This document shows positions 3,542-30,260 of a DNA stretch of 64,000 nt, in pieces. Positions within the stretch are counted from its first letter, which is position 1. Each line of letters opens with the position of its first letter. The translations under genes and the position numbers were made by a program. This DNA is from Flagellimonas profundi (GTDB lineage: Bacteria; Bacteroidota; Bacteroidia; Flavobacteriales; Flavobacteriaceae). The stretch spans positions 310,001 through 374,000 of the forward strand of contig NZ_JAFLNM010000001.1 in NCBI RefSeq assembly GCF_017313275.1, written 5' to 3'. The notes under the pieces were generated by a model. It did no database searches. It worked only from the letters and a program-made list of their open reading frames with translations, and was not told where the DNA came from.

Positions 3542-3584
3542 CAAATTTGGAAATATTGATGCACAAAAGGAATGATTACCATCA
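3542..3584 (-). promoter_or_regulatory. FNR-type box and -7 element for the FMN lipoprotein
   Basis: The palindrome TGATTACCATCA (3573-3584) is followed on the minus strand, after 23 bp, by CAAATTTG (3549 to 3542), close to the Bacteroidota -7 consensus TAnnTTTG. Read in the direction of transcription the box continues as TCATT, like most other boxes in this window. The predicted transcription start lies about 50 nt upstream of the ATG at 3485. Confidence 0.7.
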
Positions 3585-3676
3585 TATTGTGATATAGGTT
3601 TGATAATAGCAAGGCTTTTCTGCTTATAGCCTCATTGAATATTGATCGGGAAGCGCTGCACATTTGGTCATCGAGA

Positions 3677-3719
3677 TGATTTTGGTCATACTGAGCCTGT
3701 CGGGAAGGATTTAACTTTG
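3677..3719 (+). promoter_or_regulatory. FNR-type box and -7 element for the UbiB-like kinase
   Basis: TGATTTTGGTCA (3677-3688) is followed after 23 bp by TAACTTTG (3712-3719), a full match to TAnnTTTG. Together with the box at 3573 it forms a divergent promoter region between the FMN lipoprotein and the kinase gene at 3827. Confidence 0.75.
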
Positions 3720-3826
3720 AAATGAACAAAGGGGAAGGAGACATCGCATAAGGCGAGGTGACTTGTTAGTTCTGTCTTACCCTTCATAATGGCAAGGGAT
3801 GGAACCCAGAGGCAAAAAGCAGTACA

Positions 3827-5476
3827 ATGAATAGGAATACTACAAAACTAAACCGGTTTTTGAAGGTAACCTCGGTTTTTACCAAATATGGCTTTGAAAA
3901 TATATTGGCAAGTCAAAGCATTAAAAAATGGATTCCACAAAAGCTTCTTAAAAAGAATGAGAAAATAGAGAGACATCTTTCGTATTCGGTATATGAGCGT
4001 ATCAGAATGGCATTGGAAGAGTTGGGGCCCACTTATGTGAAATTGGGACAGTTGTTCAGTGATAGGGAAGATTTATTGCCAAAAGAACTCACTACAGAGC
4101 TAAAAAAACTACAGAGCAATGTAGGGCCACAAGCACTTGATGTAAGAAAGAAAATAGAGGAGGAACTTGGTATAATCCAGGAAGAACATTTTTCCTGGAT
4201 CGAAGAACATCCTTTTGCATCGGCGTCCATCGCGCAGGTATTTAAGGCGGAGCTGATAGATGGGACCAAAGTTGCCTTAAAAATAAAAAGGGAGCGGATT
4301 GCCCAAATTATTGAAGCAGACCTTTTGATCATGAAAGATGTGGCCAAGATTTTGGAGGATCAAAATGAAGAGATCAAGAAATTCAACCCAGTTCAAATGG
4401 TGTCGATTTTTGAAAGATCGATTCATCTTGAACTATCCTTTATGCACGAACGCGAGAATATTGATCGTTTTTCCAGAAATTTCGCAGAAGACCCAAGGAT
4501 TTATTGCCATAAAGTTTTCAACGAGCTTTCCAACAACAATATACTCTGTATGGAGTTCGTCGATGGCATAAGTGTTACGGATATTGAGGGTCTTGCACAA
4601 TTAGGAGCAGATCCAAAGACCGTGGCTCAAATCGGATTTGATCTTTACATGAAACAGGTGTTGGAGCATGGTTATTTTCATGCAGACCCACATCCAGGAA
4701 ATATCTTGGTAACGAATGAGGGAAAGCTCGCTTTTATAGACTTTGGAAATATGGGCACTCTAATGCCGTCGGATAAGGAACATTTGGAAGATTTTGTTCG
4801 TTATCTGGTCCAGCGGAATGCCAAAGGAATCATTACCACCCTCAAGAAAATGACCTTGCATAGGTCTATCGGTAACGAAAGGGAGCTTCAACGTGATATT
4901 TATCGGATTTTTGAAATAATCGATCAAGATTCCATTGGTAAAATTAATATTTCAAGTATCATAGGTGAGTTAAAATCAATTTTCCGAAAGAATGTCCTTG
5001 TATTTCCGGAGTATGTCTATTTGTTAATGAAAGGACTGGTTCAGATTGATGGGATTGGAAGAAAATTGGATTCTGATTTAAATTTTTATGATACTCTGGA
5101 GCCTTATGCGAAAAGAATTATCAAGAGAAGAATGTCACCATTACATAGAATTCGGGAGGGCTTTAAAAATATTGGCGAGCTATCGGAAACCTTGACGGAT
5201 ATTCCTGGTGAAGTTTTGGGTCTACTTCAGCAAGTCAAAGATGGGAACCTTAAGGTTTCACATCAAATAAAGGGATTGCCAGAAATGAAAAAAGCCATGG
5301 ATCGCCTGGTATTGGCCCTAATCATTTCTGCATTGTCTATAGGTTCTGCTATTTTGGTACTTGCCAATATGCCACCAAAGATTTTTGGGGTTCCCTTGCT
5401 GGGGCTTATCGGCTTTACGGCATCATTTTTAATCGGGCTATGGATTGTGGTGTCCATGTTGAAAAGGAAAAATTAA
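3827..5476 (+). CDS. ABC1/AarF/UbiB-family atypical kinase
   Basis: This is a 549-residue member of the UbiB/ADCK family. Visible signatures are the KxGQ motif (YVKLGQLFSDRED), the Ala-rich loop (FASASIAQVF) with the ATP-binding Lys in VALKIKR, the catalytic segment FHADPHPGNILV and the metal-binding IDFGNMG. Two hydrophobic segments at about 490-545 anchor the C-terminus in the membrane, as in UbiB. Known members support ubiquinone or menaquinone biosynthesis or lipid homeostasis by an ATPase or kinase activity. Here the gene stands alone behind an FNR-type promoter, which suggests a respiratory-quinone or membrane role under the same stress signal as the rest of the island. It converges with the exonuclease gene downstream. 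Confidence 0.85.
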   Translation: MNRNTTKLNRFLKVTSVFTKYGFENILASQSIKKWIPQKLLKKNEKIERHLSYSVYERIRMALEELGPTYVKLGQLFSDREDLLPKELTTELKKLQSNVGPQALDVRKKIEEELGIIQEEHFSWIEEHPFASASIAQVFKAELIDGTKVALKIKRERIAQIIEADLLIMKDVAKILEDQNEEIKKFNPVQMVSIFERSIHLELSFMHERENIDRFSRNFAEDPRIYCHKVFNELSNNNILCMEFVDGISVTDIEGLAQLGADPKTVAQIGFDLYMKQVLEHGYFHADPHPGNILVTNEGKLAFIDFGNMGTLMPSDKEHLEDFVRYLVQRNAKGIITTLKKMTLHRSIGNERELQRDIYRIFEIIDQDSIGKINISSIIGELKSIFRKNVLVFPEYVYLLMKGLVQIDGIGRKLDSDLNFYDTLEPYAKRIIKRRMSPLHRIREGFKNIGELSETLTDIPGEVLGLLQQVKDGNLKVSHQIKGLPEMKKAMDRLVLALIISALSIGSAILVLANMPPKIFGVPLLGLIGFTASFLIGLWIVVSMLKRKN

Positions 5477-5527
5477 AAATACTTTCTTACAGTTGGCCGT
5501 GGCCATTTTGCAAATAGCATACTTGAA

Positions 5528-6292
5528 TCATACATCGATTTCCAAAAGTATAGGACAATGATCGGAGCCAAGGATCTCGGATAATATGTTGATAGCTGTT
5601 ATCTTGGGTAACAATGTAGAGCTGACCAAAAAATAGTCTATGCGCCAACCGATATTCCGTTCCCGCGCCTTAAAGCGATAACTCCAATAGGTATAGGCCA
5701 CTTTATCTGGGTGCCGCTTACGAAAAACATCCACAAATCCAGCATTGAGAAAATTGTCCATACCATCGATTTCAATTTGCGTGTAGCCTGCTGTCTTGTT
5801 GTAATTGGCCTTGTCGTTCTTTAAGTCCATGGCCTGGTGTGCTACATTAAAATCACCACAGACTATTACCGGTTTCGTGGCTTCCAATTCTTTTAGGTAG
5901 TTTAGAAAATCCATATCCCAGGTCTTACGATAGTCCAACCGGTCCAGTTTTTGTCCCGAATTTGGGACATAGACATTAACAAGGTAGCATTGATCGTATT
6001 CGGCACATTGCACCCTTCCCTCGTAATCGTGCTCAGGATTTCCCATATCGTTATGGAAGGTCAAGGGATTTTTTTTACTCAGAATCGCGGTACCTGAATA
6101 TCCCTTTTTAAGGGCCGAGTTGGAGTACAGTGTATAACCAGTTAAAACGGACAGTTCCTTTTCCGTTTCTTGATCTTGCGCCTTGGTCTCTTGAATACAG
6201 ATGATATCCGGGTCCAGTTGCTCGATATTCTTTATGAAATCTTTTTTCATAATGGCCCTAATCCCGTTTACGTTCCAGGAAAGAATCTTCAT
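5528..6292 (-). CDS. xth: Exodeoxyribonuclease III / AP endonuclease
   Basis: The 254-residue protein is a full-length endonuclease/exonuclease/phosphatase-family DNA repair enzyme. In order it shows MKILSWNVNGIRA, the metal-binding Glu in IQETKAQ, NVYVPNSG, the catalytic GDFNVAH and the terminal GSDHCPI with the active-site Asp-His. It cleaves abasic sites and removes nucleotides 3' to 5'. The length is typical for the family. No FNR-type box was seen upstream, so it is probably a housekeeping gene lying between island units. Confidence 0.92.
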   Translation of the reverse strand: MKILSWNVNGIRAIMKKDFIKNIEQLDPDIICIQETKAQDQETEKELSVLTGYTLYSNSALKKGYSGTAILSKKNPLTFHNDMGNPEHDYEGRVQCAEYDQCYLVNVYVPNSGQKLDRLDYRKTWDMDFLNYLKELEATKPVIVCGDFNVAHQAMDLKNDKANYNKTAGYTQIEIDGMDNFLNAGFVDVFRKRHPDKVAYTYWSYRFKARERNIGWRIDYFLVSSTLLPKITAINILSEILGSDHCPILLEIDV

Positions 6293-6486
6293 ATCCGTTT
6301 ATTTTAACCTAAATATAGCGGATTGAAAGCATCTTGTAAAAACCTGCGGGACAAACTTAAAGGGGATACCAAAGCACATCATTTTTCAATGGAGTATGGC
6401 TGGCAAGAAAATATACCCATATCACCAATCTGATACCTTTTACATCAAAAAATATTTAAGCTATTATCGTTTAATTTGATGGAGGT

Positions 6487-6529
6487 TGACCGGCATCATT
6501 TTCAATTCACAGTAGGCACCATAACTTGC
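6487..6529 (+). promoter_or_regulatory. FNR-type box and -7 element for the 6551 lipoprotein
   Basis: TGACCGGCATCA (6487-6498), followed by TT, stands 23 bp before TAACTTGC (6522-6529). The transcription start would be about 20 nt upstream of the ATG at 6551. Confidence 0.8.
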
Positions 6530-6550
6530 ATTTAGATAAAAATAGATGTT

Positions 6551-7180
6551 ATGAGAAAAATAGTTGCATGGTGCTTGGTCCTGTTGCTGGCCTCATGCTC
6601 AAGCACTCGATTTGTTGATAGCTGGAAGAATAACGAAGTTACTGTATTCAGCCCCAAAAAGCTGTTGGTCATTGGTATTACCGATAACCTGACGGCCAGG
6701 AAAATCTTTGAGGAAGAGTTGCGATTGGCATTCATCAGGAAAGGCATAAATGCATTTGAGAGTACCGAAATCATTGATGAATCATTTTCGGATACCAAAA
6801 GGTCGGAGGAGGAAATACAAGAAATGACGGATGAAATAATAGAGCAAGGTTTTGATGCGGTGGCCATAACGGCCATTAAAGGAGTGGACGATAAAGTGGA
6901 TTATCGTTCCGATTATTATGATATAAGATATGGTTGGTATCGTTTTGGGCGATATTGGTATTTATATCAGGATGTGTACCATACTCCAGGATATTATTCC
7001 CAATATAAGGTCTATCATGTAGAAACCGCAGTATATGACCTCCTTGGGGAGGAAAATCAAACTTTGGTCTGGGTAGGCTCTTTTGATATTATGGACCCAA
7101 CAAGTATAACCATCACAGTCGATGATTATGTAGAACGCATAATAAAACAGATGGAACGGGATGGCCTGCTGTTAAAGTAA
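6551..7180 (+). CDS. Tyr-rich lipoprotein of unknown function
   Basis: The 209-residue protein starts with a lipoprotein signal peptide ending in LLASCSS (Cys16). A mixed alpha/beta region follows that contains KLLVIGITDN and FDAVAITAIKG, and then a very Tyr-rich segment (about residues 117-160) with repeated YDIRYGW and YWYLYQD-like stretches. The fold may resemble the DUF4136-type lipoproteins that assemble at the outer membrane, but no family can be assigned with certainty. It is a single-gene unit directly behind a strong FNR-type promoter, so it probably belongs to the stress response of this island. Confidence 0.7.
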   Translation: MRKIVAWCLVLLLASCSSTRFVDSWKNNEVTVFSPKKLLVIGITDNLTARKIFEEELRLAFIRKGINAFESTEIIDESFSDTKRSEEEIQEMTDEIIEQGFDAVAITAIKGVDDKVDYRSDYYDIRYGWYRFGRYWYLYQDVYHTPGYYSQYKVYHVETAVYDLLGEENQTLVWVGSFDIMDPTSITITVDDYVERIIKQMERDGLLLK

Positions 7181-7209: not shown

Positions 7210-7252
7210 TGATTTAGGTCATTTGAAGTAATAAGTACATTACGGATATTTA
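7210..7252 (+). promoter_or_regulatory. FNR-type box for the sigma-like gene operon
   Basis: TGATTTAGGTCA (7210-7221), followed by TT, stands 23 bp before GATATTTA (7245-7252). This -7 element is the weakest of the set. A shifted reading, TATTTAG at 7247, is also possible. The operon start codon is at 7281. Confidence 0.6.
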
Positions 7253-7280
7253 GTTGTTGATAATAATAATCTCATGTACT

Positions 7281-8057
7281 ATGGAAAAGATTAAAGTAGA
7301 TAATTGGCAAGAGCTTCCCTTTCAGGAAAGGGTGGCAGAAGCTTTTTCGGAATTGAGACAACTGAAACAGCAAGGTGACACGCGTGCCTTTGGCAACCTT
7401 CTTATTGCCATTTTGCCCGAAGTGAGAAGCTATATGACAAAAAGGTTCAATACCGCCTTGGGAAAAGGAATGCTCCCCAAAGGAAAATACAAGATTGATG
7501 ATTTTATCGATCAGCTCTTTTTGGAAGCGTTTGAGCATTTTGATGAGGTGACCAATAAATGGGACCTAAATCCATGGCTTTTTAAAAAGGCGGATATGCT
7601 TTTGGATGAAGTGATCGAGGAAGAGGAGTTCGACGAGGTTTTCTTTGAGAACATTGATACGTATTCAAAGTTGGAATGGAAATCAATGGAGGAAAAGTTC
7701 AGTACGGATGGTGATGGTGACTATGTGATGTTGGAAGAATTGGATGATATCTCCTACCATGGGCGTGATTATTTGCTCAAGAATATTTTTCTTGACGAGG
7801 ACAAAAAAGACCTCATGGCAAAACTTGATCGACAACAGGAAAGGGACACCATTGCCAAGCATATTGATTTGGTACTTTACCATATGTCAGAAAAGATGCA
7901 GTCCATTTACCAACTTTATGCGGAACAAAGGTTTGGTATACGTGAAATCGCCGGAATCAAGAATATTTCGGTAGAGGAGGTACAACAGCTTTTAAACAAG
8001 GCCAAGGAGCATTTGGAAAGCAGCTTATATTACAGGTTTTTAACGGATAATGTTTAA
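7281..8057 (+). CDS. Sigma-70-like protein (region 4 HTH), divergent
   Basis: From the ATG at 7281 the protein has 258 residues. An upstream in-frame ATG at 7254 adds only a hydrophobic nonapeptide and is less likely. The C-terminal 65 residues (MSEKMQSIYQLYAEQRF then IREIAGIKNISVEEVQQLL) look like sigma region 4 with its helix-turn-helix. The N-terminal part (IDDFIDQLFLEAFEHF) resembles a degenerate region 2. The middle is unusually acidic. It could be an alternative sigma factor of the ECF kind or a sigma-derived regulator. No anti-sigma gene lies nearby. It is followed after 5 bp by a small helical protein and is probably co-transcribed with it. Confidence 0.6.
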   Translation: MEKIKVDNWQELPFQERVAEAFSELRQLKQQGDTRAFGNLLIAILPEVRSYMTKRFNTALGKGMLPKGKYKIDDFIDQLFLEAFEHFDEVTNKWDLNPWLFKKADMLLDEVIEEEEFDEVFFENIDTYSKLEWKSMEEKFSTDGDGDYVMLEELDDISYHGRDYLLKNIFLDEDKKDLMAKLDRQQERDTIAKHIDLVLYHMSEKMQSIYQLYAEQRFGIREIAGIKNISVEEVQQLLNKAKEHLESSLYYRFLTDNV

Positions 8058-8062
8058 ACAAA

Positions 8063-8461
8063 ATGGAACGAAACCCCAATACGGAACTATTGCTGGAAGC
8101 CAGTTTGGACAGCCTACACCGGGAGAGTAGGGAATGGCTCGAGACCGTTGCCTTTTGGAAGGACGAGACCCGTTTTTTCAGGGATTTGTTGGAAAATAAA
8201 AAGAAAAGCTTTGGGAACTTGTCCGAGTATGGAAAAATCCTTGAGGATTTAAATCAGCTCCACGAAGGTTTATATGATTACTTGGTCGATGATATTTCAG
8301 AACATGAAATATTTTTGGGTAAGGTGTTGAAAACGGAAAAGGGCATTGCGGATGCCGAATATCGTGAGAAACATCAAAAACTGAAATCAAGGATGGATGT
8401 TTTCGAACGGGATTTCAGGGCCTTCAAAAGGATGGTGTTCGGTTATGTAAAAGCATTGTAA
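8063..8461 (+). CDS. Small helical protein, paralogue of the 12987 gene product
   Basis: The 132-residue protein is predicted to be almost wholly alpha-helical and charged. The N-terminal pattern W-L-x-x-x-x-FWKDETRFFRDLL and the C-terminal FERDFRAFKRMVFGYV are shared in outline with the protein at 12987-13436 (W-L-x-DLYFYRDDLRFLHHLI and FVKDFRVHRKSVFE). The two are therefore probably distant paralogues within the island. No signal peptide is present, so it should be cytoplasmic. It starts 5 bp after the sigma-like gene. The function is unknown, and an interaction partner of the sigma-like protein is one guess. Confidence 0.6.
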   Translation: MERNPNTELLLEASLDSLHRESREWLETVAFWKDETRFFRDLLENKKKSFGNLSEYGKILEDLNQLHEGLYDYLVDDISEHEIFLGKVLKTEKGIADAEYREKHQKLKSRMDVFERDFRAFKRMVFGYVKAL

Positions 8462-9696: not shown

Positions 9697-9739
9697 TGAC
9701 CTGGGTCATTGGATAGGGCTCGATGGTGACCTAACTTGC
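9697..9739 (+). promoter_or_regulatory. FNR-type box and -7 element for the WG-repeat/SDR operon
   Basis: TGACCTGGGTCA (9697-9708), followed by TT, stands 23 bp before TAACTTGC (9732-9739). The -7 octamer is identical to that of the 6551 promoter. Confidence 0.8.
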
Positions 9740-9765
9740 TTGATATCATCTAAAAGACATGAGCT

Positions 9766-12173: not shown

Positions 12174-12216
12174 ACAAGTTAGTTGACGGTCCAAACAGAG
12201 GAAATGATGTGCATCA
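12174..12216 (-). promoter_or_regulatory. FNR-type box and -7 element for the small membrane protein
   Basis: TGATGTGCATCA (12205-12216) reads in minus orientation as TGATGCACATCA followed by TT. After 23 bp comes TAACTTGT (12181 to 12174). The leader to the ATG at 12109 would be about 60 nt. Confidence 0.8.
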
Positions 12217-12367
12217 TTGGAAACGGGCCGGGACCATAGAAATTCATGCTTTAAAATCAAGGAATCATAACAATCTTGACCATAGGACTTGTAGTATGGC
12301 TCTCTATTAAAAAGCTATCAGAAAACCTCTTGGAATATCTGGGTCAGTGTTAAAATATGCTCCAGTT

Positions 12368-12410
12368 GACCGAGGTCATTTTGAAATTCCCTTAAAAGTA
12401 TCAACTTGAA
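12368..12410 (+). promoter_or_regulatory. FNR-type box and -7 element for the DUF2267 gene
   Basis: TGACCGAGGTCA (12368-12379), followed by TT, stands 23 bp before CAACTTGA (12403-12410). With the box at 12205 it forms a divergent pair within one 325-bp intergenic region. Confidence 0.78.
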
Positions 12411-13457: not shown

Positions 13458-13493
13458 AAAAAAAAGAAACCGGAACACCTAAATGTTCCGGTT
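13458..13493 (-). terminator. Intrinsic terminator of the minus-strand RNA
   Basis: On the minus strand a 10-bp perfect stem (AACCGGAACA with TGTTCCGGTT) closes a 6-nt loop and is followed by TTCTTTTTTTT. The T-run lies only on the minus side, so it terminates leftward transcription. Confidence 0.85.
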
Positions 13494-13667
13494 CCAAAGA
13501 AGAAATTACGCTATCCAATGACCGCTTACACTGGAAACTACTCAGATTTATCGCTAAACCTTTTCACAACTCAAAAAGTATAAAGGATATCTGTAGCTTC
13601 TCCTTTTATCTTAATTTCTTTATGCAATTGTCCTACCCATTAAAGTTTAATGTGCTTAACAATGATG
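13458..13667 (-). ncRNA. Candidate FNR-box-controlled small RNA (about 210 nt)
   Basis: A promoter of the island type (box 13702-13713, -7 element TAATTTAG at 13678 to 13671) points left into a gene-free stretch. Transcription would start near 13667 and end at an intrinsic terminator at 13493 to 13458. The only ATG-initiated frames inside are a few codons long. A 22-codon frame ending in GEATDILYTF lacks an ATG. This suggests a regulatory RNA, or less likely a leader with a tiny peptide. The strand is opposite to the gene at 12987, and the RNA ends just beyond that gene's stop. Confidence 0.6.
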
Positions 13668-13670: not shown

Positions 13671-13713
13671 CTAAATTACAATATGGGGACAGGCTTTGAA
13701 ATGACCCAGATCA
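13671..13713 (-). promoter_or_regulatory. FNR-type box and -7 element with no protein gene downstream
   Basis: TGACCCAGATCA (13702-13713) reads TGATCTGGGTCATT in minus orientation. After 23 bp comes TAATTTAG (13678 to 13671), identical to the hsp20 -7 element. The only thing downstream is the candidate small RNA ending at 13458. Confidence 0.78.
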
Positions 13714-16190: not shown

Positions 16191-16233
16191 CCAATTTCAC
16201 AATCAGCGAAGCTTTATACAATGATCTACGTCA
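16191..16233 (-). promoter_or_regulatory. FNR-type box and -7 element for ppsA
   Basis: TGATCTACGTCA (16222-16233) reads TGACGTAGATCATT in minus orientation. After 23 bp comes GAAATTGG (16198 to 16191), a weaker -7 element. The start codon is at 16168. Confidence 0.7.
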
Positions 16234-16310: not shown

Positions 16311-16353
16311 TGATTGGAATCATTGTCAAATGGGTTGCAGTGGCATAAATTCA
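16311..16353 (+). promoter_or_regulatory. FNR-type box and -7 element for the PepSY-like/dodecin unit
   Basis: TGATTGGAATCA (16311-16322), followed by TT, stands 23 bp before TAAATTCA (16346-16353). With the ppsA box it makes a divergent regulatory region. The leader to 16422 is about 65 nt. Confidence 0.78.
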
Positions 16354-17289: not shown

Positions 17290-17332
17290 TGATCGGCGTC
17301 ATTGTAAACAAGTGATGTTACCATTAAATTAA
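17290..17332 (+). promoter_or_regulatory. FNR-type box and -7 element for the methyltransferase operon
   Basis: TGATCGGCGTCA (17290-17301), followed by TT, stands 23 bp before TAAATTAA (17325-17332). The ATG is at 17351, so the leader would be very short. Confidence 0.75.
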
Positions 17333-19209: not shown

Positions 19210-19252
19210 TGAAGCTAGGGCATACGGCCTTTACCATCAATGATATACATCA
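19210..19252 (-). promoter_or_regulatory. FNR-type box and -7 element for the phosphoribosyltransferase
   Basis: TGATATACATCA (19241-19252) reads TGATGTATATCATT in minus orientation. After 23 bp comes TAGCTTCA (19217 to 19210). The leader to the ATG at 19141 is about 65 nt. Confidence 0.75.
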
Positions 19253-19273: not shown

Positions 19274-19316
19274 TGATCCCGATCATTTCCGGCACTTGCT
19301 GCTTTTTCTACTTTTA
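19274..19316 (+). promoter_or_regulatory. FNR-type box and -7 element for the 19344 operon
   Basis: TGATCCCGATCA (19274-19285), followed by TT, stands 23 bp before TACTTTTA (19309-19316). Its centre lies 33 bp from the centre of the divergent box at 19241-19252. Confidence 0.75.
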
Positions 19317-19577: not shown

Positions 19578-19639
19578 AGGTGTAATGGTTTCATGTCTAT
19601 TTGTCCACTTATCTAGTAAGGAAAATAAATAGTGATCAA

Positions 19640-22605: not shown

Positions 22606-22648
22606 TGATCTGGGTCATCCCTTAGGATGGTTTTATGGATTACTTTAG
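22606..22648 (+). promoter_or_regulatory. FNR-type box and -7 element with no protein gene downstream
   Basis: TGATCTGGGTCA (22606-22617) stands 23 bp before TACTTTAG (22641-22648). The core is the same as in the other RNA promoter (13702-13713) and the hsp20 box. Only the candidate small RNA lies downstream on this strand. Confidence 0.78.
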
Positions 22649-22651: not shown

Positions 22652-22856
22652 AACATTTGATATTCAAAAGATATTGAATGTAAAGGTTCTTAAATCTTGT
22701 GAAAGACTTGGGAACTAGGGGAGATAAAAAATTGTTCATTGAACCTTTTGATTTTTGAATTTGTTTGGCAACAAACTTGTTCGGATTTTAATGTAAGTGG
22801 TAATTGACAAATTTTTATTTTCACGGAACTGGGGTACGCAAGTACCCCAGTTTTTT
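22652..22856 (+). ncRNA. Candidate FNR-box-controlled small RNA (about 205 nt)
   Basis: Transcription from the promoter at 22606-22648 would start near 22652 and stop at the strong terminator 22828-22856. The two ATG codons inside are each followed at once by TAA, so the RNA is not coding. Local inverted repeats (ATTCAA with TTGAAT near 22675, and AAAGGTTC with GAACCTTT about 60 nt apart) suggest secondary structure. It lies between the erythromycin-esterase gene and the converging regulator gene. Confidence 0.65.
22828..22856 (+). terminator. Strong intrinsic terminator of the plus-strand RNA
   Basis: A perfect 10-bp stem (ACTGGGGTAC with GTACCCCAGT) closes a GCAA tetraloop and runs into six T residues. 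The T-run is on the plus strand only. Confidence 0.9.
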
Positions 22857-22961
22857 ATGCCCACCCCCCGACATATCAAAAAAGACATTTCATGATTGGG
22901 TGCTATGTTGCATGGTATAAGAGATAGCATGGCTTTCCATATTTCGGGCCTCTTTCTCCTT

Positions 22962-24035
22962 TTAGTCTTCAAAATCCGCTATGCGCTGGAGCTTCTCTTT
23001 ATCCAATAGCGTGAGCTTTTTTCTGCTGTCCGTCCCAATCAGCCCAATTTCTTTAAATTTTGTAAGTGTCCTGATTGCGGTTTCTTTGGCGACCCCTATC
23101 ATTGAGGCCAGGTCTTCCCTGAGGATATCCACTCCTTTTTGGTTTTCATCCTTCAATATACCCTTTTCATGAAGTTCCAATAGTGCTTTGGCGGTACGTC
23201 GATTAACCGATGAGTAAGCAATGTCAATCAATTTTTCCTGTAAGTGTACCGTATTGCTGGAAATAATTTCAAGGAACTTATTGGCAAGTTCCATGTCGTG
23301 GTGGATCAAATTGACAAAATCTTGCTTGGGTATATCCAACACTTCGGCATATTCCATGGTGACGGCAGATTCAATATAGATGCCTTCCTTACCAAGTAGG
23401 GAAAGTTGACCAAAAAAATCACCTGGGCCATACCAACCGGTAACTATTTCCTTTCCGCTTTCGGCTACCCTATAGGTTTTTACATTGCCTTTTTCCACAA
23501 AATAAAGATGATGGGCAGCATCGCCTTCCCGAAATATGATATCCCTATCCTTAAAGTGCTTGTTTTTTCTACTGCTTGAAAGAAGTTCTTCATCCAGATA
23601 TGCTGAAGCTTCCTTTAAGAATAAATTGAGTCCCTTGGAGTTTTTATCGACCCTTTGTCGCAAAAAGTCGTTTTTTTTCAGACGAATCTCCAAAGCCTTT
23701 AAAAGTTCTTCCGTTTTAAAGGGTTTGTAAATGTAATCATCGGCTCCAAGGCTCAAACCCCGTCTAATATCCTCTTTTTGGTCCTTGGCAGTGAGAAAAA
23801 TAAATGGGATGCCCGCTGTCCTTTCATTTTGACCCAATACTTCCAGAACCGTATAGCCATTTGCTTCGGGCATCACGATATCACATATGATGATATCGGG
23901 AAGTGCTGTCATGGCCATTTGTATGCCCACTCTACCATTTTCTGCGGCAATAACCTCATAATTGCACAATTCGAGAAGTTCCACTGTGTTTTCCCGGAAC
24001 TCGGGATTATCTTCGATGATTAGTACCTTTTTCAT
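22962..24035 (-). CDS. Response regulator: receiver fused to CRP/FNR-type DNA-binding protein
   Basis: The 357-residue protein has an N-terminal receiver domain (acidic pocket IIEDN, phospho-acceptor Asp52 in ICDIVMP, Thr82, Lys104). A cyclic-nucleotide-binding-like beta roll spans about 155-250, followed by a dimer helix and a CRP-type helix-turn-helix at 305-335. The recognition helix reads KETAIR (317-322). Its Glu318 and Arg322 match the residues with which CRP and FNR read TGA/TCA. The nucleotide pocket reads FGQLSLL and ESA where CRP has FGEL and RSA, so cAMP binding is unlikely. The roll has no Cys, so no FNR iron-sulfur cluster is possible. The start overlaps the kinase gene by 29 bp. 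It is the prime candidate for binding the TGAY-N4-RTCA boxes. Confidence 0.92.
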   Translation of the reverse strand: MKKVLIIEDNPEFRENTVELLELCNYEVIAAENGRVGIQMAMTALPDIIICDIVMPEANGYTVLEVLGQNERTAGIPFIFLTAKDQKEDIRRGLSLGADDYIYKPFKTEELLKALEIRLKKNDFLRQRVDKNSKGLNLFLKEASAYLDEELLSSSRKNKHFKDRDIIFREGDAAHHLYFVEKGNVKTYRVAESGKEIVTGWYGPGDFFGQLSLLGKEGIYIESAVTMEYAEVLDIPKQDFVNLIHHDMELANKFLEIISSNTVHLQEKLIDIAYSSVNRRTAKALLELHEKGILKDENQKGVDILREDLASMIGVAKETAIRTLTKFKEIGLIGTDSRKKLTLLDKEKLQRIADFED

Positions 24036-26586
24036 TTTTTTTCATGTTTTTCGGAAGTTCCAATTCAAAGGAGCTTCCCCTGTTTTCTTCGCTTTCAAAA
24101 CGTAAGGAACCCTCCATCAGCTCTGTATATGACTTGATAATATGCAATCCAAGACCTGTTCCAGCAATTTCCAGACTGTTTCGTGCCCTGTAAAACCTTT
24201 TGAAGATATATTGTTTCTCTTCTTCCGGTATCCCTATGCCTTGGTCCCTTACACGTATGATTGTCTTTTCGTCCTTCCCATAGATTTGTAACAGGATTGG
24301 TTGCCCTTCGTTGGAGTACTTGATGGCGTTGCTCAATAGGTTCAAAACGATATAGCGAATCAGTTTGGGATCCAGATAAACCTCCAGTTTGGTAACATTG
24401 CATTCCAATTCCAGTGTCTGTCCCTTCTTTTTATCAATGCCCACTTCTTCCAAAAGGGTTTTGGACAATTCCAATAGGTCAAAGTTTTTGGGTGTGGCCC
24501 GGGTCGCCCCTTCTTCTAGTTTGGTCAATGACAGAAAGTCGTTCAATAGGTCTGTCAGATGCTGAACATTGGATTTTATACGTTCCAAATGGAACATACG
24601 CCTTTCAACTTTTTCCGGAGTGTCAAGCTTCTCGATAAGGGAAGCGGAGGAAAGAATGATGCTTAGTGGCGTTCTGAACTCATGGGATGCGGTACTTATA
24701 AAGCGGCTCTTAAGTTCGCTGAGCTCTATCTCTTTTCTAAGGTTATCCTGGACAGTCTCTTCATTTCGTTTTCTTTCCGAAATATTGAACAAGACCAAAA
24801 GAGCGAGGGATGCCTCCCCATTTTCTTTGAATAGGGGAGTGGTGTTGACCATATAGCTGTCCATTGCATCTTCAAAATCAAAACTGAGGTGCTTTCCCTT
24901 CAAGGTTTGATCGATATGCTGTTGGAGTAGTGACCTGTTTTTTTTGGATATACCTCTCAGGTCATTGATTCTGAGTGCTTTATTTGTTTCTAGTTGGTCC
25001 TGTAAATGTTTGAACGCAGTACCCTTGAAAAAGGTGATCTCCATTTTTTGGTCGACCAAAAGGATAGAGCCTTTTGGGAAATTTTGTGCAATATTCAGTA
25101 AAATGGTCTCATGGATTTCCAATTGCTCTTCGGCCATTTTGGTCTCCGCTATTTGCGTGATGAGGTCAAAATTGGTCTCTGTCAATTTCTTAAGGGTTTT
25201 TTTTAAATCCTTGTTTCTCCGTGAAACTTTTTTTTCCAATTCTTTGGAATACCGCTCCAATTGTTTACGACTAAGGATCAAATTTTCCTGAACTCTTTTT
25301 TTTGCAATCGCTAAACTGGCCAAATTGGCCATCTCTTCTACAAGTTTTCCTATTTTCGAGTCTGGACGGAATGGATATGGGTGAAAAATGGACAATATCC
25401 CAAGCACATTGTTCTCAGCGTCCATCAAGGGATAGGAACAGGTCCATTGGATACCACTTTGTTTGAGCACATCCCAGTATTTTGACCATGAAGGTTCTTT
25501 GAAGATATCGGGTACAACTTCTTTTTTTTTGGATTGTACCGCCCTTAAAGCGGTACACGAAGCAGACTCAGATATAATTTGGTCCAATGCTTGCTCGAAA
25601 GGCATTGAAGCGGACACACCAGAAATCCGCTGCAGTTTTTGTTCCCTTTGATCATAGGCTGCAATTGTTATGATACCGACATTGAGTTGTTGCTCCAAAA
25701 CTGATTTCATACGGTCGAATATCTGTGTCAAATTCCTTTTCTCTATGATCATTTCCAATACCTCATTCTTTATTTTTCGTATGAATTCCAGGTTCTTTTT
25801 TTCGGTAATATCGTTTTGGACACCTATAAAATGGGTGACTTCGCCTGTTTCGTTCCGTATGGGGGTAATGGAAAGTTGATTCCAAAACATGCTGCCGTCC
25901 TTCCTGTAATTTCGTATCTCGACACGGCATGGTGATTTGGACTTCAATGCTTCACGCATGTCGAATATTTCCCTTTGGTCTCGATCATCATTTTGAAGAA
26001 AATTGCATTTTCTTCCAATAACTTCATCGTGAGTGTATCCGGTAATCCTTTCAAAAGCCTTGTTTACATAAATGATGGGAAACCCTTCCAACTGTGCATT
26101 GGATATGATTACACCATTTTGGACTTCGTCGAGTGCCCTATCCCTTATGATATTGATCTTTCCCCCTGTAATCTGTTCCGTGATATCTTGAATGTATCCC
26201 TCCAGGAAAATGGTTCCTTTTTTATTTTGGATCGCGACCCCCGTTTCGTTTACCCAGTGTACCCTCTGGTTTTTGTCCAAAACTCTGTAGGTATGACGAA
26301 ATTTCGTTTTATTGTCCAAGGCTTTTTGGATGGTATTCTGAACATTTCCAAGATCCAGTGGATGGATGATATCCGTCCAGGAAACCCCATCGATCGCACA
26401 GAATGCTTCGGGCTTATGTCCCGTGACCCATTGGCATTCCTCGCTTATATAGAGCATGGTCCTTTTAGGGTCATTTTTGCACTTAAAAACAATACCAGGT
26501 AAGTTTTCCACGAGGGTACGCAACTTCCTATCCCCTTCAAATAAAAGGGAGTAGTCTTGTTGCTTATTGAAGTTTTGCCCTTGCAT
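24007..26586 (-). CDS. PAS-LOV-GAF-PAS sensor histidine kinase
   Basis: The 859-residue kinase has no membrane segment. In order it has a PAS domain (about 20-137), a LOV-type PAS (145-262), a GAF domain (285-430), a coiled coil (430-490), a third PAS (490-605), HisKA with His635 in SHEFRTP, and a HATPase domain with NLLSNAIKYS, DQGIGIPEE and GTGLGLHI. The LOV part shows GRKCNFLQ (191-198, candidate adduct Cys194), NYRKDG, FWN and GVQ, which match the flavin-contacting residues of LOV photoreceptors. The usual Asn and Arg around the Cys are Lys and Asn. It overlaps the regulator gene by 29 bp and has an FNR-type box upstream, which suggests autoregulation. Confidence 0.9.
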   Translation of the reverse strand: MQGQNFNKQQDYSLLFEGDRKLRTLVENLPGIVFKCKNDPKRTMLYISEECQWVTGHKPEAFCAIDGVSWTDIIHPLDLGNVQNTIQKALDNKTKFRHTYRVLDKNQRVHWVNETGVAIQNKKGTIFLEGYIQDITEQITGGKINIIRDRALDEVQNGVIISNAQLEGFPIIYVNKAFERITGYTHDEVIGRKCNFLQNDDRDQREIFDMREALKSKSPCRVEIRNYRKDGSMFWNQLSITPIRNETGEVTHFIGVQNDITEKKNLEFIRKIKNEVLEMIIEKRNLTQIFDRMKSVLEQQLNVGIITIAAYDQREQKLQRISGVSASMPFEQALDQIISESASCTALRAVQSKKKEVVPDIFKEPSWSKYWDVLKQSGIQWTCSYPLMDAENNVLGILSIFHPYPFRPDSKIGKLVEEMANLASLAIAKKRVQENLILSRKQLERYSKELEKKVSRRNKDLKKTLKKLTETNFDLITQIAETKMAEEQLEIHETILLNIAQNFPKGSILLVDQKMEITFFKGTAFKHLQDQLETNKALRINDLRGISKKNRSLLQQHIDQTLKGKHLSFDFEDAMDSYMVNTTPLFKENGEASLALLVLFNISERKRNEETVQDNLRKEIELSELKSRFISTASHEFRTPLSIILSSASLIEKLDTPEKVERRMFHLERIKSNVQHLTDLLNDFLSLTKLEEGATRATPKNFDLLELSKTLLEEVGIDKKKGQTLELECNVTKLEVYLDPKLIRYIVLNLLSNAIKYSNEGQPILLQIYGKDEKTIIRVRDQGIGIPEEEKQYIFKRFYRARNSLEIAGTGLGLHIIKSYTELMEGSLRFESEENRGSSFELELPKNMKKNEKGTNHRR

Positions 26587-26725: not shown

Positions 26726-26768
26726 CAAAAATAAGTGTTGATAGTGGTGTACACCATGATGAAAATCA
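26726..26768 (-). promoter_or_regulatory. FNR-type box and -7 element for the kinase-regulator operon
   Basis: TGATGAAAATCA (26757-26768) reads TGATTTTCATCA in minus orientation. After 23 bp comes TATTTTTG (26733 to 26726), an exact TAnnTTTG. The leader to the ATG at 26586 would be about 135 nt. Confidence 0.72.
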
Positions 26769-26850: not shown

Positions 26851-29511
26851 TCAACATGTGATTCCGATTCGTTTTAAACATTGGGAAACTATCAAAGAAA
26901 TACCTCCAAATAAAAGTGGCCACCCCATCTCTGACCATGATATCCTTACCAAGGAGAGTGCCCTTGCCATTACAGGGATAAAATAAGTTGCTAGGGTAAT
27001 ACCTAAAGACAGGACAATGGCACCCCATATCCATGGATTTTTCGTCACTTCGTTATGGATAAACGGAGCATGTCTGCTTGGCATGTTGAACACATGGAGC
27101 AATTGGGCGATGATCAAGGTGTAAAATGCCAAGTTGTTTATCTGTTGAGGAGGAAGTTGTAAACTATATTCAGAAAAGATGGTTATTCCCAATACAGAGA
27201 TAGTGATGGATAGACCATACAGAATAGTGGATTTCCAATGCAGGGCGGTCATTATGGGATCTTCTGTGTTTCTCGGCGGCTTTTCCATTACCCCATCTTC
27301 ACCTTTTCCAAAACCCAAGGCCAGCGCAGGGAAGATATCGGTGACCAGATTTAGGAAGAGGATTTGAAGGGGTAGCAAGGGGGATGTGATGTTCAAAAGT
27401 GCTGCCACACCCACAATTATGATTTCTGCCAGATTGCAAGAGAGCAGATAAATCAAAAACTGTCTTATATGATCAAAGATTACCCTGCCTTGCCTAATAG
27501 CCAATGCTACGGCTGCAAAACGATCATCCTTGAGAATGATATCAGCGGCTTCCCTTGCCGCTTCGGTTCCTCTTTTGCCCATCGCAATGCCGATATCCGA
27601 TTTGATAAGGGCCGGTACATCATTGACTCCGTCCCCAAACATCCCAATTACATTGTTTTGTTTTTGAAAAAAAGTAACGAGGTTCAGCTTCTGTTGGGGT
27701 GTTACCCTTGCAAACACTTTTGTGCCCAGTAGTCGTTTTATACTTTGGGGACTTTTAATATCCAACCTTTCCAATTCATTGCCTTCCATCAAAGCGATTT
27801 GCGGTTCGTCCAAGTTCAACAGACCAATGTCCACAGCGATTTTTTGTGCTGTCTTCGGATGGTCCCCGGTCATCATCACGACCCTGATACCCGCTTTCTC
27901 ATAAATGTCCATGATCTGTTTTACATCGTCCCTTGCAGGGTCCATAAAACCTACAAGTCCCAAGAAAATAAGATTATTGCATAGATCCTCTTTTTTTAGT
28001 TCCGTTCCCTGTCCAGTTTTATAGGCCATTGCAATGGTTCTTAACCCATTGGAGGACATTTGCTCCATGGATCGGCGCCAGGCATCCAGACTCTTTAATG
28101 GAACTATGGTTTCCTCCCTGTATTCCCGAGAACATAATGGAGCTATTTTTTCAAAGGCCCCTTTTACAAAAACAGCATTTGAGGTTGAATCCATTTGATT
28201 AACCGTGACCATAAACTTTCTGTTCTCATCAAAGGGAATTTTGTATAATTCGGGATGTTTTTTCCGTATCCTTTCGGGGTCTTTGCCAAGTTGACGAACA
28301 AACTGAAGCAGGCCCAGGTCAATGGAGTCATAATATGGCCGATCTGTCCCTAGGGTGATATCGTTGCATAGGGTACTTGTCAATATAAGCTTTTCCAATG
28401 CATTTGTATTCATTTTTTGTTCCATCCATTCCTTTTGGTTCTGGTGCAATGGGCGGAAAAAATTTCCATCAATGGCAAGGGTATCCACCAACATATTGTC
28501 TTCGGTCAGGGTTCCGGTTTTATCCGATGCCACCATGGTGATGGAACCGAGCACCTCCACAGCTTCCATTCTTTTGATAACGACCTGTTTTTTGGACAAT
28601 CGCAACATCCCCCTGGCCAATGCAATGGTGACCACCACGGGTAGACCTTCTGGAATGGTCGCCACTGCCAACGCGATTCCAATTTCGACCATGACGATAA
28701 GATCTATTCCCCTCCAAATCCCCATCAGGATAATGGGGAAAATAAAAGCTAACGTAAAGTATATCAATCGTCTACCGAGTTGGTTCAACTTTTTGTCCAA
28801 AGGAGTGCCGGACTCCTCTGTGGATGCCGCTAGGGACTGAATGTTCCCCAAAACGGTTGTGGGCCCCGTGGCTACCACTATTCCTTTTCCGTTGCCCCTG
28901 CTTACGATAGTGCCCTTGAAGGCCATGTTCTTTTGCTCGACTGTAGGAAGTTTTTGCCCTAAAGTTTTGACATGCTTTGAAACTGGGATACTTTCCCCGG
29001 TCAGTATTCCTTCTTTTATTTCCAGGTTTTCCGTGTCTGTCAAACGAATATCCGCTGCTATGACATCCCCAATTCCCAACATAAGAATATCCCCGGGAAC
29101 AACTCTAGTGGTCGGAACCTTTTGGATTTTGCCCGAACGGATCACCCGACACTCCATTTGTCCAATGCTGCGAAGCAATTCAAGGGATCGTAAGGCACTT
29201 AGCTCCATGAAAAACCCAATGAGAAGGGTAATGATGATGACAATACAGACGGTAATTGTTTCCAACAAATCACCAAAAAAGTAGGTTAGAACAGCGGCAA
29301 GGGCAAGGATATATAGAATAGGGTTATCCAATTGTTCCAACAGAACCTGAAGTTTGGTCTTTCGTACATGTTGAGGAAGGCAGTTTTCACCATATTTGGA
29401 GAGGCGGTTTGTTGCTTCATGAGGGCTCAAACCTTTATTTTGATCACTATCCAGTAACTGGACAACCTTTTTTATTGGGATGGAATATGCATTGTGATGG
29501 GTAAGGTTCAT
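26851..29511 (-). CDS. SERCA/PMR1-like P-type cation ATPase
   Basis: The 886-residue type II P-type ATPase has the actuator TGES motif (ILTGESIPV), phosphorylation site DKTGTLTE, nucleotide domain KGAFEKI, and the hinge motifs MTGDHPKTA and GDGVNDVPAL. Transport-site residues of SERCA are conserved: PEGLP in M4, a Glu in SCNLAEIIIVG (M5), and Asn and Asp in LNLVTD (M6). This points to Ca2+ or Mn2+ export. The gene lies 104 bp downstream of hsp20 on the same strand, with a large hairpin between them, and may share the hsp20 promoter. A P-type ATPase of related type (CtpF) is part of the mycobacterial DosR regulon. Confidence 0.92.
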   Translation of the reverse strand: MNLTHHNAYSIPIKKVVQLLDSDQNKGLSPHEATNRLSKYGENCLPQHVRKTKLQVLLEQLDNPILYILALAAVLTYFFGDLLETITVCIVIIITLLIGFFMELSALRSLELLRSIGQMECRVIRSGKIQKVPTTRVVPGDILMLGIGDVIAADIRLTDTENLEIKEGILTGESIPVSKHVKTLGQKLPTVEQKNMAFKGTIVSRGNGKGIVVATGPTTVLGNIQSLAASTEESGTPLDKKLNQLGRRLIYFTLAFIFPIILMGIWRGIDLIVMVEIGIALAVATIPEGLPVVVTIALARGMLRLSKKQVVIKRMEAVEVLGSITMVASDKTGTLTEDNMLVDTLAIDGNFFRPLHQNQKEWMEQKMNTNALEKLILTSTLCNDITLGTDRPYYDSIDLGLLQFVRQLGKDPERIRKKHPELYKIPFDENRKFMVTVNQMDSTSNAVFVKGAFEKIAPLCSREYREETIVPLKSLDAWRRSMEQMSSNGLRTIAMAYKTGQGTELKKEDLCNNLIFLGLVGFMDPARDDVKQIMDIYEKAGIRVVMMTGDHPKTAQKIAVDIGLLNLDEPQIALMEGNELERLDIKSPQSIKRLLGTKVFARVTPQQKLNLVTFFQKQNNVIGMFGDGVNDVPALIKSDIGIAMGKRGTEAAREAADIILKDDRFAAVALAIRQGRVIFDHIRQFLIYLLSCNLAEIIIVGVAALLNITSPLLPLQILFLNLVTDIFPALALGFGKGEDGVMEKPPRNTEDPIMTALHWKSTILYGLSITISVLGITIFSEYSLQLPPQQINNLAFYTLIIAQLLHVFNMPSRHAPFIHNEVTKNPWIWGAIVLSLGITLATYFIPVMARALSLVRISWSEMGWPLLFGGISLIVSQCLKRIGITC

Positions 29512-29546
29512 CCCTTGAAAATTGTTCAGTTTACAATTAGAAGTAA

Positions 29547-29601
29547 GGTATCCCCATTGGTCATCACCTTTTTTTGTTGGTGAAACAGCAATGGGGATAC
29601 C
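29547..29601 (-). promoter_or_regulatory. Long hairpin between hsp20 and the ATPase gene
   Basis: GGTATCCCCATTG (29547-29559) and CAATGGGGATACC (29589-29601) are perfect 13-bp inverted copies with a short CACC/GGTG stem inside the loop. On the minus strand no T-run follows the hairpin, so it is probably not a simple terminator. It could be a processing or stabilising element that sets the ratio of hsp20 to ATPase mRNA. Confidence 0.55.
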
Positions 29602-29615
29602 AAAAAAATCGAAAT

Positions 29616-30080
29616 CTAGGAGACCTTTATTACTTTTGGTTTTTGTTTTTTGGCTTCCTCTTTCTTGGTCAATTTGAATCTTAGAATCCCATTATCATAT
29701 TTTGCCTCTACAGCCTCATCTTTAATACTATCGGGCAGTTGGAGGGAGCGTTCAAAAGATTCGTGACTGAATTCTTGTCGTGTATACTCTCCTTCTTTTT
29801 CCTCTTTTGTCGCGGACTTTTCTGCAGAAATGTTCAAACACCCATTTTCCATGGTAATGTTGAAATCCTTTTTGTCATAACCGGGTGCAGCCATTTCAAC
29901 CGCAAAGTCCTCATCGGTCTCTTTGATATTTATGGCAGGAACGGAAGATTTTCCGTTCCAAAACCTTCCTTTCCAAGTTTTTGGGTCCCAAATGCGATCT
30001 TCAAAGAAATCGTCAAGGTCGAAAAAATCCGAACCTATAAGTCTTCCAAGGGGTCTTCTTTTAAATTTTACCAGTGACAT
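29616..30080 (-). CDS. Hsp20/alpha-crystallin small heat shock protein
   Basis: The 154-residue protein has the alpha-crystallin domain (about 50-145). The signature is AVEMAAPGYDKKDFNITMENGCLNI in part, then FSHESFERSLQLPDSI, NGILRFKLTKKE and a short C-terminal KPKVIKVS tail, whose IxV-like motif mediates oligomer contacts. It is an ATP-independent holdase in the cytoplasm. The promoter at 30122-30164 has an FNR-type box, so it belongs to the island regulon, comparable to HspX in the DosR regulon. Confidence 0.95.
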   Translation of the reverse strand: MSLVKFKRRPLGRLIGSDFFDLDDFFEDRIWDPKTWKGRFWNGKSSVPAINIKETDEDFAVEMAAPGYDKKDFNITMENGCLNISAEKSATKEEKEGEYTRQEFSHESFERSLQLPDSIKDEAVEAKYDNGILRFKLTKKEEAKKQKPKVIKVS

Positions 30081-30121
30081 AATTCAATTTTTTTAGTTAA
30101 ACACTATCCATTTAATGGTAC

Positions 30122-30164
30122 CTAAATTATAATACACTATGCTGAAGTAAAATGATCTGGGTCA
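30122..30164 (-). promoter_or_regulatory. FNR-type box and -7 element for hsp20
   Basis: TGATCTGGGTCA (30153-30164) reads TGACCCAGATCATT in minus orientation. After 23 bp comes TAATTTAG (30129 to 30122). The leader to the ATG at 30080 is about 40 nt. Confidence 0.8.
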
Positions 30165-30217
30165 CCATGGGACGCAATTCGTATGGGATTCTAAGTATAC
30201 ACTTACAGTGTAGGGAT

Positions 30218-30260
30218 TGATGAAAATCATTTCTTTTTATGTGGATTACCGATAAGTTTA
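30218..30260 (+). promoter_or_regulatory. FNR-type box and -7 element for the third Usp gene
   Basis: TGATGAAAATCA (30218-30229), flanked as TTGATGAAAATCATT and so a near-perfect classical FNR site, stands 23 bp before TAAGTTTA (30253-30260). It is divergent from the hsp20 promoter. Confidence 0.8.

What the first reader, a model, noticed from the sequence alone, without database searches (positions are those of the whole stretch)
3542..30260. Seventeen FNR-type boxes at a fixed 23-bp distance from -7 elements define a regulon
Seen: TGAY-N4-RTCA palindromes end exactly 23 bp before a TAAnTTnG-like -7 element at 3573, 3677, 6487, 7210, 9697, 12205, 12368, 13702, 16222, 16311, 17290, 19241, 19274, 22606, 26757, 30153 and 30218 (box left ends). 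Read toward the gene, nearly all continue TCATT. Seven face the minus strand and ten the plus strand. By simple base odds this pattern is expected about once per 16 kb, yet here 17 lie in intergenic DNA within 27 kb, all in phase with a promoter. Known: class II CRP/FNR activators bind centred near -41. Inferred: one activator controls the whole island. I found none in the intergenic DNA from 32 to 64 kb by eye.
Basis: partly seen in the sequence, partly recalled or inferred. Interest (0 to 1): 0.95.

Follow-up and report, generated by a model that had tools for sequence, protein, structure and literature searches.

The report
Light-sensor kinase, CRP-type stress regulon
A flavobacterium carries 17 DNA boxes in one shared promoter-like layout around a sensor-and-regulator gene pair, and these are predicted to switch on together, likely in response to blue light or redox stress, a set of stress-protein genes and two copies of what is likely a new kind of structured RNA.

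Summary
All 17 boxes exist (12368 is 12367) and all are intergenic. Thirteen have TANNTT exactly 23 bp away; four differ only in its first base. With the published flavobacterial -7 position the box centre falls at -41.5. Genome-wide there are 67 such sites against 3 for the reversed pattern; 15 lie in the island. Pooled over 19 loci, 219 sites sit at gap 23 and 0-14 at any other gap from 5 to 45.

The likely activator is not FNR but the island's own REC-CRP fusion response regulator (22962-24035). It keeps the phosphorylation residues and lacks iron-sulfur cysteines and the cAMP-binding Glu and Arg. Its partner kinase (24007-26586) carries a LOV (blue-light type) domain, as do 16 of 19 loci examined. 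Site number tracks this regulator: means of 10.7, 4.2 and 0.8 in family genomes with it, with only its paralogue, or with neither.

Two boxes precede no gene but a ~200-nt structured RNA, found in 9 of 11 congeners with the regulator, 2 of 31 with only the paralogue and 0 of 18 with neither; no Rfam family matches it. The targets (Usp, Hsp20, PEP synthase, P-type ATPase) recall the mycobacterial DosR regulon. The signal (light or redox) and all binding are inferred.

The parts
22962..24035 (-). REC-cNMP-HTH_Crp fusion response regulator (357 aa), proposed activator of the island
   Evidence: Pfam Response_reg, cNMP_binding, HTH_Crp_2; D9, D52, K104 and E318/R322 invariant in the 120 listed homologues
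24007..26586 (-). multi-sensor histidine kinase (859 aa): PAS, LOV-type PAS (about residues 151-272) with GRKCNFLQ, GAF, HisKA, HATPase; a further PAS near residues 490-610 by eye
   Evidence: Pfam; best PDB matches of the LOV part include blue-light photoreceptors; LOV in 16 of 19 loci
3573..3584 (-). box for FMN-binding-domain gene 2817-3566; -7 variant CAAATTTG
3677..3688 (+). box for ABC1-type kinase gene 3827-5476
6487..6498 (+). box for gene 6551-7180, lipoprotein-like by eye (TANNTT also at gap 23 on the other strand)
7210..7221 (+). box for genes 7254-8461 and perhaps Usp gene 8693-9568; -7 variant GATATT
9697..9708 (+). box for WG-repeat gene 9766-10452 and SDR gene 10433-11194
12205..12216 (-). 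box for gene 11732-12109, membrane protein by eye, no Pfam match
12367..12378 (+). box for DUF2267 gene 12435-12887 and 12987-13436; -7 variant CAACTT, also in lutisoli
13702..13713 (-). box for RNA-B
13463..13666 (-). RNA-B: ~204-nt structured RNA with intrinsic terminator (start inferred; model core 13463-13607)
16222..16233 (-). box for PEP synthase/PPDK-type gene 13769-16168; -7 variant GAAATT, also in two relatives
16311..16322 (+). box for gene 16422-16931 (no Pfam match; homologues follow boxes in 9 of 20 loci)
17290..17301 (+). box for methyltransferase gene 17351-17992 and gene 17989-18396 (weak archease match, below cut-off)
19241..19252 (-). box for phosphoribosyltransferase gene 18494-19141
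19274..19285 (+). box for small ORF 19344-19577, then perhaps 19601-20176, Usp 20199-21038 and erythromycin-esterase-family gene 21187-22509
22606..22617 (+). box for RNA-A
22653..22856 (+). RNA-A: ~204-nt structured RNA with intrinsic terminator (start inferred; model core 22715-22857)
26757..26768 (-). box for the kinase-regulator operon itself (predicted autoregulation)
   Evidence: a kinase of this family follows a box in 12 of 20 loci
30153..30164 (-). box for Hsp20 gene 29616-30080, with P-type cation ATPase gene 26851-29511 downstream
30218..30229 (+). box for Usp genes 30274-31116 and 31228-32091

Best explanation
The island is a cluster of 17 boxes, each at one distance from a promoter-like -7 element, around a gene pair in which a LOV-domain (blue-light type) histidine kinase is predicted to phosphorylate the adjacent REC-CRP fusion regulator, which would then bind these TGAY-N4-RTCA boxes 41.5 bp before the likely transcription starts and switch on stress-protein genes, its own operon and two likely regulatory RNAs. 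Shown by sequence: the boxes, the fixed spacing, the intergenic placement, the domain make-up, the conservation across genera, the covariation in the RNA, and the tracking of site number and RNA with presence of the regulator. Inferred: phosphotransfer between the two proteins, DNA binding, activation rather than repression, the start sites, and that light and/or flavin redox state is an input. The kinase has further sensor domains (PAS, GAF), so light is probably one of several inputs.
For: Spacing: pooled over 19 loci 219 sites at gap 23, 0-14 at each other gap from 5 to 45. Bases not imposed by the search emerge: T and G that complete TAnnTTTG, and an A-rich/T-rich flank on the two sides of the box. 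TAnnTTTG lies at -12 to -5 in mapped flavobacterial starts (PMC9723704, passages), which puts the box centre at -41.5. In 20 loci, 199 of 226 sites have a gene start just downstream (random 23%) and 11 of 226 lie inside genes (random 82%). Tracking: mean sites per genome of the stricter pattern 10.7 / 4.2 / 0.8 in 19 / 93 / 137 family genomes with the island-class regulator / only the second class / neither; mean sites of the general pattern 51.6 / 35.3 / 21.3 in 11 / 31 / 18 congeners, reversed control 1.5. Regulator: REC residues and CRP recognition-helix Glu/Arg invariant in 120 homologues, Gln at the cAMP Glu position in 120 of 120, only Cys 24 and 51 in the query. Kinase: LOV in 16 of 19 loci, all 16 with the reactive Cys, and in 8 of 8 further congeners, one of them (G249) with Tyr for Cys. 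RNA.
Against: No expression or binding data exist here. Four of 17 boxes lack the first T of the -7 element. The spacing is shared by paralogous CRP/FNR regulators: 18 congeners without a REC-CRP match still have 9-30 sites each, and one family genome without a match (G062) has 9 of the stricter sites. The group comparisons do not correct for relatedness. Three of 19 island-class loci have kinases without a LOV domain; four of the 16 LOV domains (G001, G108, G119, G212) lack the usual C-terminal Gln, and the window's own has Lys and Asn around the Cys (GRKCNFLQ) where 10 of 16 have N-C-R, any of which could alter flavin chemistry. 27 of 226 sites have no gene call behind them. Two of 11 congeners with the regulator lack a detectable RNA.
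Confidence: 0.72

Rival explanations
1. The same kinase-regulator pair runs the island, but the physiological signal is oxygen or redox state (through LOV flavin reduction, PAS or GAF), not light; the island is a hypoxia/dormancy programme.
For: Gene content resembles hypoxia regulons: Usp, Hsp20, P-type ATPase, PEP synthase, PRTase, erythromycin-esterase family. Usp genes belong to a hypoxia-induced dormancy regulon in M. tuberculosis (PMC11841059, passages). LovK photochemistry is reported to be conditioned by redox state (PMC4844311, passages). Three island-class kinases have no LOV and one congener's LOV lacks the Cys.
Against: The photoactive Cys is kept in 16 of 16 LOV domains of the first sample; a purely redox flavin sensor should not need it (inference).
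Confidence: 0.4
2. The FNR-like protein (C3:815 kb) or the second REC-CRP (C2:495 kb) is the main activator of the island; the island regulator has another job.
For: They share the spacing and the TGA..TCA half-sites; the recognition helices are alike.
Against: In this genome 10 of 14 island sites but 12 of 52 others have two or more G/C in the four central bases, and 7 of 8 sites at the FNR-like locus have at most one (one reverse-direction island site was dropped). Site number rises with the island-class regulator on top of the second class, within one genus too. In other genera sites gather around the island-class gene. Against this: the GC-rich centre is not general in other genera, and only 2 of 6 sites at the second locus share TCATAGTATA, so the sub-codes are soft.
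Confidence: 0.13
3. The boxes are repressor sites or serve both signs.
For: Two boxes (6487, 22606) have a -7 match on both sides; sign cannot be read from sequence.
Against: A centre at -41.5 is the class II activator position. Apart from a T-run directly after the box (about -35 to -32), which might double as a -33 element, the spacer of 219 sites shows no conserved element.
Confidence: 0.07

Closest known systems
Class II CRP/FNR-dependent promoters (E. coli CRP, FNR; recalled)
   Same: TGA-N6-TCA palindrome centred at -41.5
   Different: Bacteroidota -7 element TAnnTTTG; proposed activator is a REC fusion without the cAMP or Fe-S ligands
DosR (DevR) dormancy regulon of mycobacteria (recalled)
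   Same: Usp, Hsp20, cation P-type ATPase, PRTase and erythromycin-esterase-type genes under one two-component system
   Different: CRP-type instead of NarL-type regulator; LOV kinase instead of haem GAF kinase; structured RNA in the regulon; one dense island
LOV histidine kinases LovK/LovR (Caulobacter) and Brucella LOV-HK
   Same: LOV kinase feeding a stress response (PMC4844311, passages; PMC4438053, search listing)
   Different: no CRP-type DNA-binding response regulator there (recalled)
NmpRSTU oxygen-utilisation regulon of Myxococcus xanthus (PMC11841059, passages)
   Same: two-component system controlling several promoters, Usp genes among them, through one consensus sequence
   Different: NtrC-type regulator; seven promoters; no RNA named in the passages seen
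Flavobacterium psychrophilum sRNAs Rfp1-89 incl. Rfp18 (PMC9723704, passages)
   Same: short, often structured RNAs, some conserved in other species

Membership tests
FNR (Fe-S oxygen-sensing CRP/FNR subgroup) | four Cys ligands of a 4Fe-4S cluster (recalled) | tested here: not met
   only Cys24 and Cys51, both in REC
FNR (Fe-S oxygen-sensing CRP/FNR subgroup) | TGAT-N4-ATCA-type box | tested here: met
   TGAY-N4-RTCA at all 17 places
cAMP-CRP | Glu and Arg of the cAMP phosphate-binding cassette (recalled) | tested here: not met
   Gln in 120 of 120 at the position aligned with the Glu of M. tuberculosis CRP-type chains; no Arg in the following stretch of the query
Class II CRP/FNR promoters | activator box centred near -41.5 | tested here: met
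   fixed gap 23 to TAnnTTTG plus published -12 to -5 position; starts not mapped in this organism
Class II CRP/FNR promoters | transcription activation through RNA polymerase contacts | not testable with these tools
   needs in vitro transcription
Two-component response regulator | REC domain with acidic pair, phosphoacceptor Asp, Thr/Ser, Lys | tested here: met
   E8, D9, D52, K104 and T/S82 each 120 of 120
LOV photoreceptor histidine kinase | LOV core with reactive Cys and FMN-contacting Asn/Asn/Gln (recalled), plus HisKA/HATPase | tested here: met
   KCNFLQ, NYRKDG, FWN, FIGVQ in the window; PDB matches to blue-light photoreceptors; the Gln is replaced in 4 of 16 LOV domains
LOV photoreceptor histidine kinase | blue-light adduct formation | not testable with these tools
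   needs spectroscopy
DosR dormancy regulon | NarL-type DosR regulator and haem GAF kinase (recalled) | tested here: not met
   regulator is REC-CRP, kinase is PAS/LOV/GAF
Known Rfam RNA families (incl. 6S) | match to a covariance model of Rfam 15 | tested here: not met
   no match over RNA-A or RNA-B to E 5 in window 3000-33000, none over the RNA cores to E 1 in six relatives' loci

The most novel reading that the evidence does not exclude
Blue light, read by a LOV kinase and passed to a phospho-activated CRP-type regulator, switches on a complete DosR-like dormancy island in flavobacteria; a previously undescribed structured RNA family, made from the same class II promoters, is the island's post-transcriptional arm.
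Probability: 0.3. Interest if true: 0.9.

Novelty: new variant of a known kind. Interest (0 to 1): 0.72.

Why it matters
It gives a sequence-readable regulon in a group where few are known, names a regulator type (REC-CRP) and a LOV sensor for it, links a light/redox receptor to a dormancy-like gene set that other phyla place under unrelated regulators, and adds a structured RNA family whose presence follows the regulator. Each link can be tested with one deletion, one EMSA or one Northern blot.

Tried and rejected
Chance or a repeat artefact: rejected by the spacing histogram, reversed-pattern controls and intergenic placement. FNR as the island regulator: set aside because of the missing cysteines and the mostly AT-centred boxes at the FNR-like locus. 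Small proteins behind the two gene-less boxes: own RNA-A has one 27-codon ORF (it begins before the inferred start and is not kept in TMED12); own RNA-B has none of 19 codons or more, while both relatives' RNA-B carry a 28-codon one; the paired structure is what is conserved, so an RNA was preferred. Rfam: nothing over the RNAs. GC-rich box centre as a general mark: rejected, it separates sub-codes only within this genome. I first read the 219-site profile as lacking a -33 element; the T-run after the box covers about -35 to -32, so that cannot be claimed. Antisense pairing of the conserved GUAAGUGGUCAUU strand with start codons was considered, not tested. Papers: searches (open-licence PMC only; listings of up to 15 papers) listed none whose title or abstract start joins a LOV kinase to a CRP-type response regulator or describes this island; in the photoreceptor-kinase review PMC6798134 the word CRP does not occur in the main text. 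PMC8199190 was looked at for CRP-type regulators and gave nothing (passages). Absence from these searches is not proof of absence from print.
Full report
OBSERVATION. The window holds 20 TGAY-N4-RTCA boxes against 5.69 expected from shuffles. 17 of the 18 in 3.5-30.3 kb are intergenic; the other, 18813, lies in a gene. Counting TANNTT at every gap from 5 to 45, gap 23 has 15 box-directions and gaps 17-22 and 24-29 have none. Four boxes have another base in place of the first T of the -7 element. Where a named close relative covers the site (12367 in lutisoli; 16222 in lutisoli and TMED12) the same variant is found, so these may be weak promoters rather than errors.

GENOME. The window is C2:310001-374000 of a 4.0-Mb genome close to [Muricauda] lutisoli (regulator 98% identical) and Muricauda sp. 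TMED12 (97%). The full pattern occurs 67 times against 3 for its reversal; 15 are in the island. Of the 52 others, 6 lie around a second REC-CRP/kinase pair with Usp genes (C2:491-500 kb) and 8 around an FNR-like gene with a cbb3 maturation gene, a HemN-like gene and Usp genes (C3:815-840 kb). Others precede, for example, a Usp gene at C2:380 kb, an FtsH-type protease and a ferritin-like (Dps-type) gene. Two or more G/C in the four central bases: 10 of 14 island sites (one reverse-direction site dropped), 12 of 52 others. So one spacing is used by several paralogous regulators, with soft differences in the box.

REGULATOR AND SENSOR. The island encodes a 357-aa protein with receiver, cNMP-binding and Crp-type HTH domains, next to and co-oriented with an 859-aa PAS/GAF histidine kinase. 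In the 120 homologues listed (of 5125 found) the receiver residues are invariant; the position of the cAMP-contacting Glu is Gln in all 120; the query's only cysteines are in the receiver; the recognition helix keeps Glu318 and Arg322. I infer that phosphorylation replaces cAMP or an Fe-S cluster as the switch. The kinase's second PAS matches LOV photoreceptors in the PDB. I examined 19 loci with the island-class regulator: own, two named relatives, and 16 of the 18 other island-class genomes of the family draw (G037 and G202 were not examined). 16 have a LOV domain, all 16 with the reactive Cys; G063, G168 and G218 have none. Four of the 16 lack the usual C-terminal Gln (G001, G108, G119, G212). 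All 8 further congeners examined have a LOV; G249 has Tyr in place of Cys. The own second kinase has no LOV signature.

CONSERVATION. Two regulator classes separate in 249 family genomes: 19 with the island class (47% identity or more; scores of 342 bits or more against 289 or less), 93 with only the second class, 137 with neither at E 1e-60. Mean counts of the stricter pattern TGAYN4RTCATT-N21-TANNTTNG are 10.7, 4.2 and 0.79; the highest count without a match is 9 (G062), the highest with only the second class 16 (G126). Within 60 congeners the counts of the general pattern are 51.6 (n=11), 35.3 (n=31) and 21.3 (n=18), reversed control 1.5. These comparisons do not correct for relatedness. 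Around the island-class gene in the 16 other genomes, 3-20 sites lie per 34-40 kb. In 20 loci (these 16, own, two named relatives, and one second-class locus, G248), 199 of 226 sites precede a gene start (-40 to 450 bp) against 23% of random positions, 27 do not, and 11 of 226 are inside genes against 82%. Pooled without G248, 219 sites sit at gap 23. The most recurrent downstream families, in numbers of the 20 loci, are Hsp20 (18), kinases of this family (12), a 176-aa family without a Pfam match (12), YtxH-like (10), the family of 16422-16931 (9), patatin-like (8) and Usp (8). PEP synthase, dodecin and PRTase families follow in 4 each.

PROMOTER LAYOUT. The 219-site profile shows an A-rich left flank, TGAC/T-N4-A/GTCA, a T-run (0.94, 0.74, 0.67, 0.49), a spacer without further conserved bases, and TAnnTTTG, whose last two bases were not imposed. 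In F. psychrophilum mapped starts TAnnTTTG lies at -12 to -5 (PMC9723704, passages). This gives a box centre of -41.5, the class II position. The T-run is stronger than its mirror image and falls at about -35 to -32, so it may also serve as a -33 element.

THE RNA. Boxes 22606(+) and 13702(-) have no called gene within 450 bp. Instead about 204 nt follow (start inferred), ending in a strong intrinsic terminator, conserved in lutisoli and TMED12. The same kind of RNA follows gene-less boxes in G108, G247 and G056: a GNRA-capped hairpin whose stem changes in pairs, a conserved GUAAGUGGUCAUU-like strand, and the terminator. A covariance model from 8 core sequences without the box (R1) was run on the 249 family genomes. 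It gave 29 matches in 21 genomes at E 0.01 or better. 16 matches, in 13 genomes, have a gap-23 box 106-125 nt upstream; 11 of those 16 were not in the seed. 4 have one at another distance. 9 have none; of these one (G037) has only 74 nt of contig upstream, and the other eight include the lowest-scoring hits. All 13 genomes have a REC-CRP: 9 the island class, 4 only the second. On 15 aligned sequences 93.8% of cells pair against 84.2% in shuffles (0 of 500 as high) and 41-55% when slid; 21 of 35 pairs show changes on both sides (the alignment was fitted to the model, which favours it). With model R2, 9 of 11 congeners with the island-class regulator have the RNA, 2 of 31 with only the second class, 0 of 18 with neither (Fisher P 2e-7 for the first against the rest). 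All 12 genus loci checked have a box 93-128 nt upstream; two overlapping opposite-strand matches were not checked. In 296 genomes of the order 6 match at E 0.001. No Rfam match covers the RNAs. Its function is unknown; I infer a regulatory RNA of the stress programme.

READING. The best reading is a LOV-kinase / REC-CRP two-component system activating a stress island through class II promoters. Gene content resembles the DosR regulon (recalled) and other Usp-containing low-oxygen regulons (PMC11841059, passages), while LOV kinases are known to feed general stress responses in alphaproteobacteria (PMC4844311, passages; PMC4438053, search listing). None of the papers listed in my searches visibly joins the two.

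LIMITS. No transcript, binding or light data. E-values of the RNA models are rough. Gene calls outside the window are simple ORF calls. All but two relatives are unnamed.

Noticed in passing
G000:C2:491-500 kb (L005): Second kinase / REC-CRP pair (38% identical to the island regulator) with Usp genes; 2 of its 6 boxes continue TCATAGTATA. Its kinase has no LOV signature.
   Followed up: partly
G000:C3:815-840 kb (L006, L007): FNR-like gene with its own AT-centred box, next to a cbb3 maturation (FixS) gene, a HemN-like gene and Usp genes with boxes at the same 23-bp gap.
   Followed up: partly
window 18813: An eighteenth box lies inside the phosphoribosyltransferase gene and has no TANNTT at gap 23; probably chance.
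   Followed up: yes
window 6487 and 22606: Both boxes have TANNTT at gap 23 on both sides, so they may fire in both directions.
   Followed up: no
G247 (L063:7321, 7609), G056 (L075:6589, 6858): Tandem box-driven RNAs: an upstream relative with GUGUUGGCCCA precedes the main RNA type.
   Followed up: partly
5' ends of the box-driven RNAs in G108, G247 (second RNA), G056 (second RNA); G119 has GTTCCTTGAAA: GTTCTTTGA-like stretch near the 5' end, which resembles a boxA antitermination signal (recalled).
   Followed up: no
L172 (G249): The LOV domain of this congener's kinase has Tyr in place of the reactive Cys: a natural test of light-independent use.
   Followed up: no
G000:C4:19803 and C5:80215: The same 41-bp promoter-like stretch occurs identically on two contigs, perhaps a duplicated gene.
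   Followed up: no
window 7254-8057: Protein with a weak sigma-70 region 4 match (below Pfam cut-off) heads one island operon; might be an unusual transcription factor.
   Followed up: no
G062 (family draw): Nine strict-pattern sites although no REC-CRP was found at E 1e-60 (genome 84% complete); the regulator may lie in a missing part.
   Followed up: no
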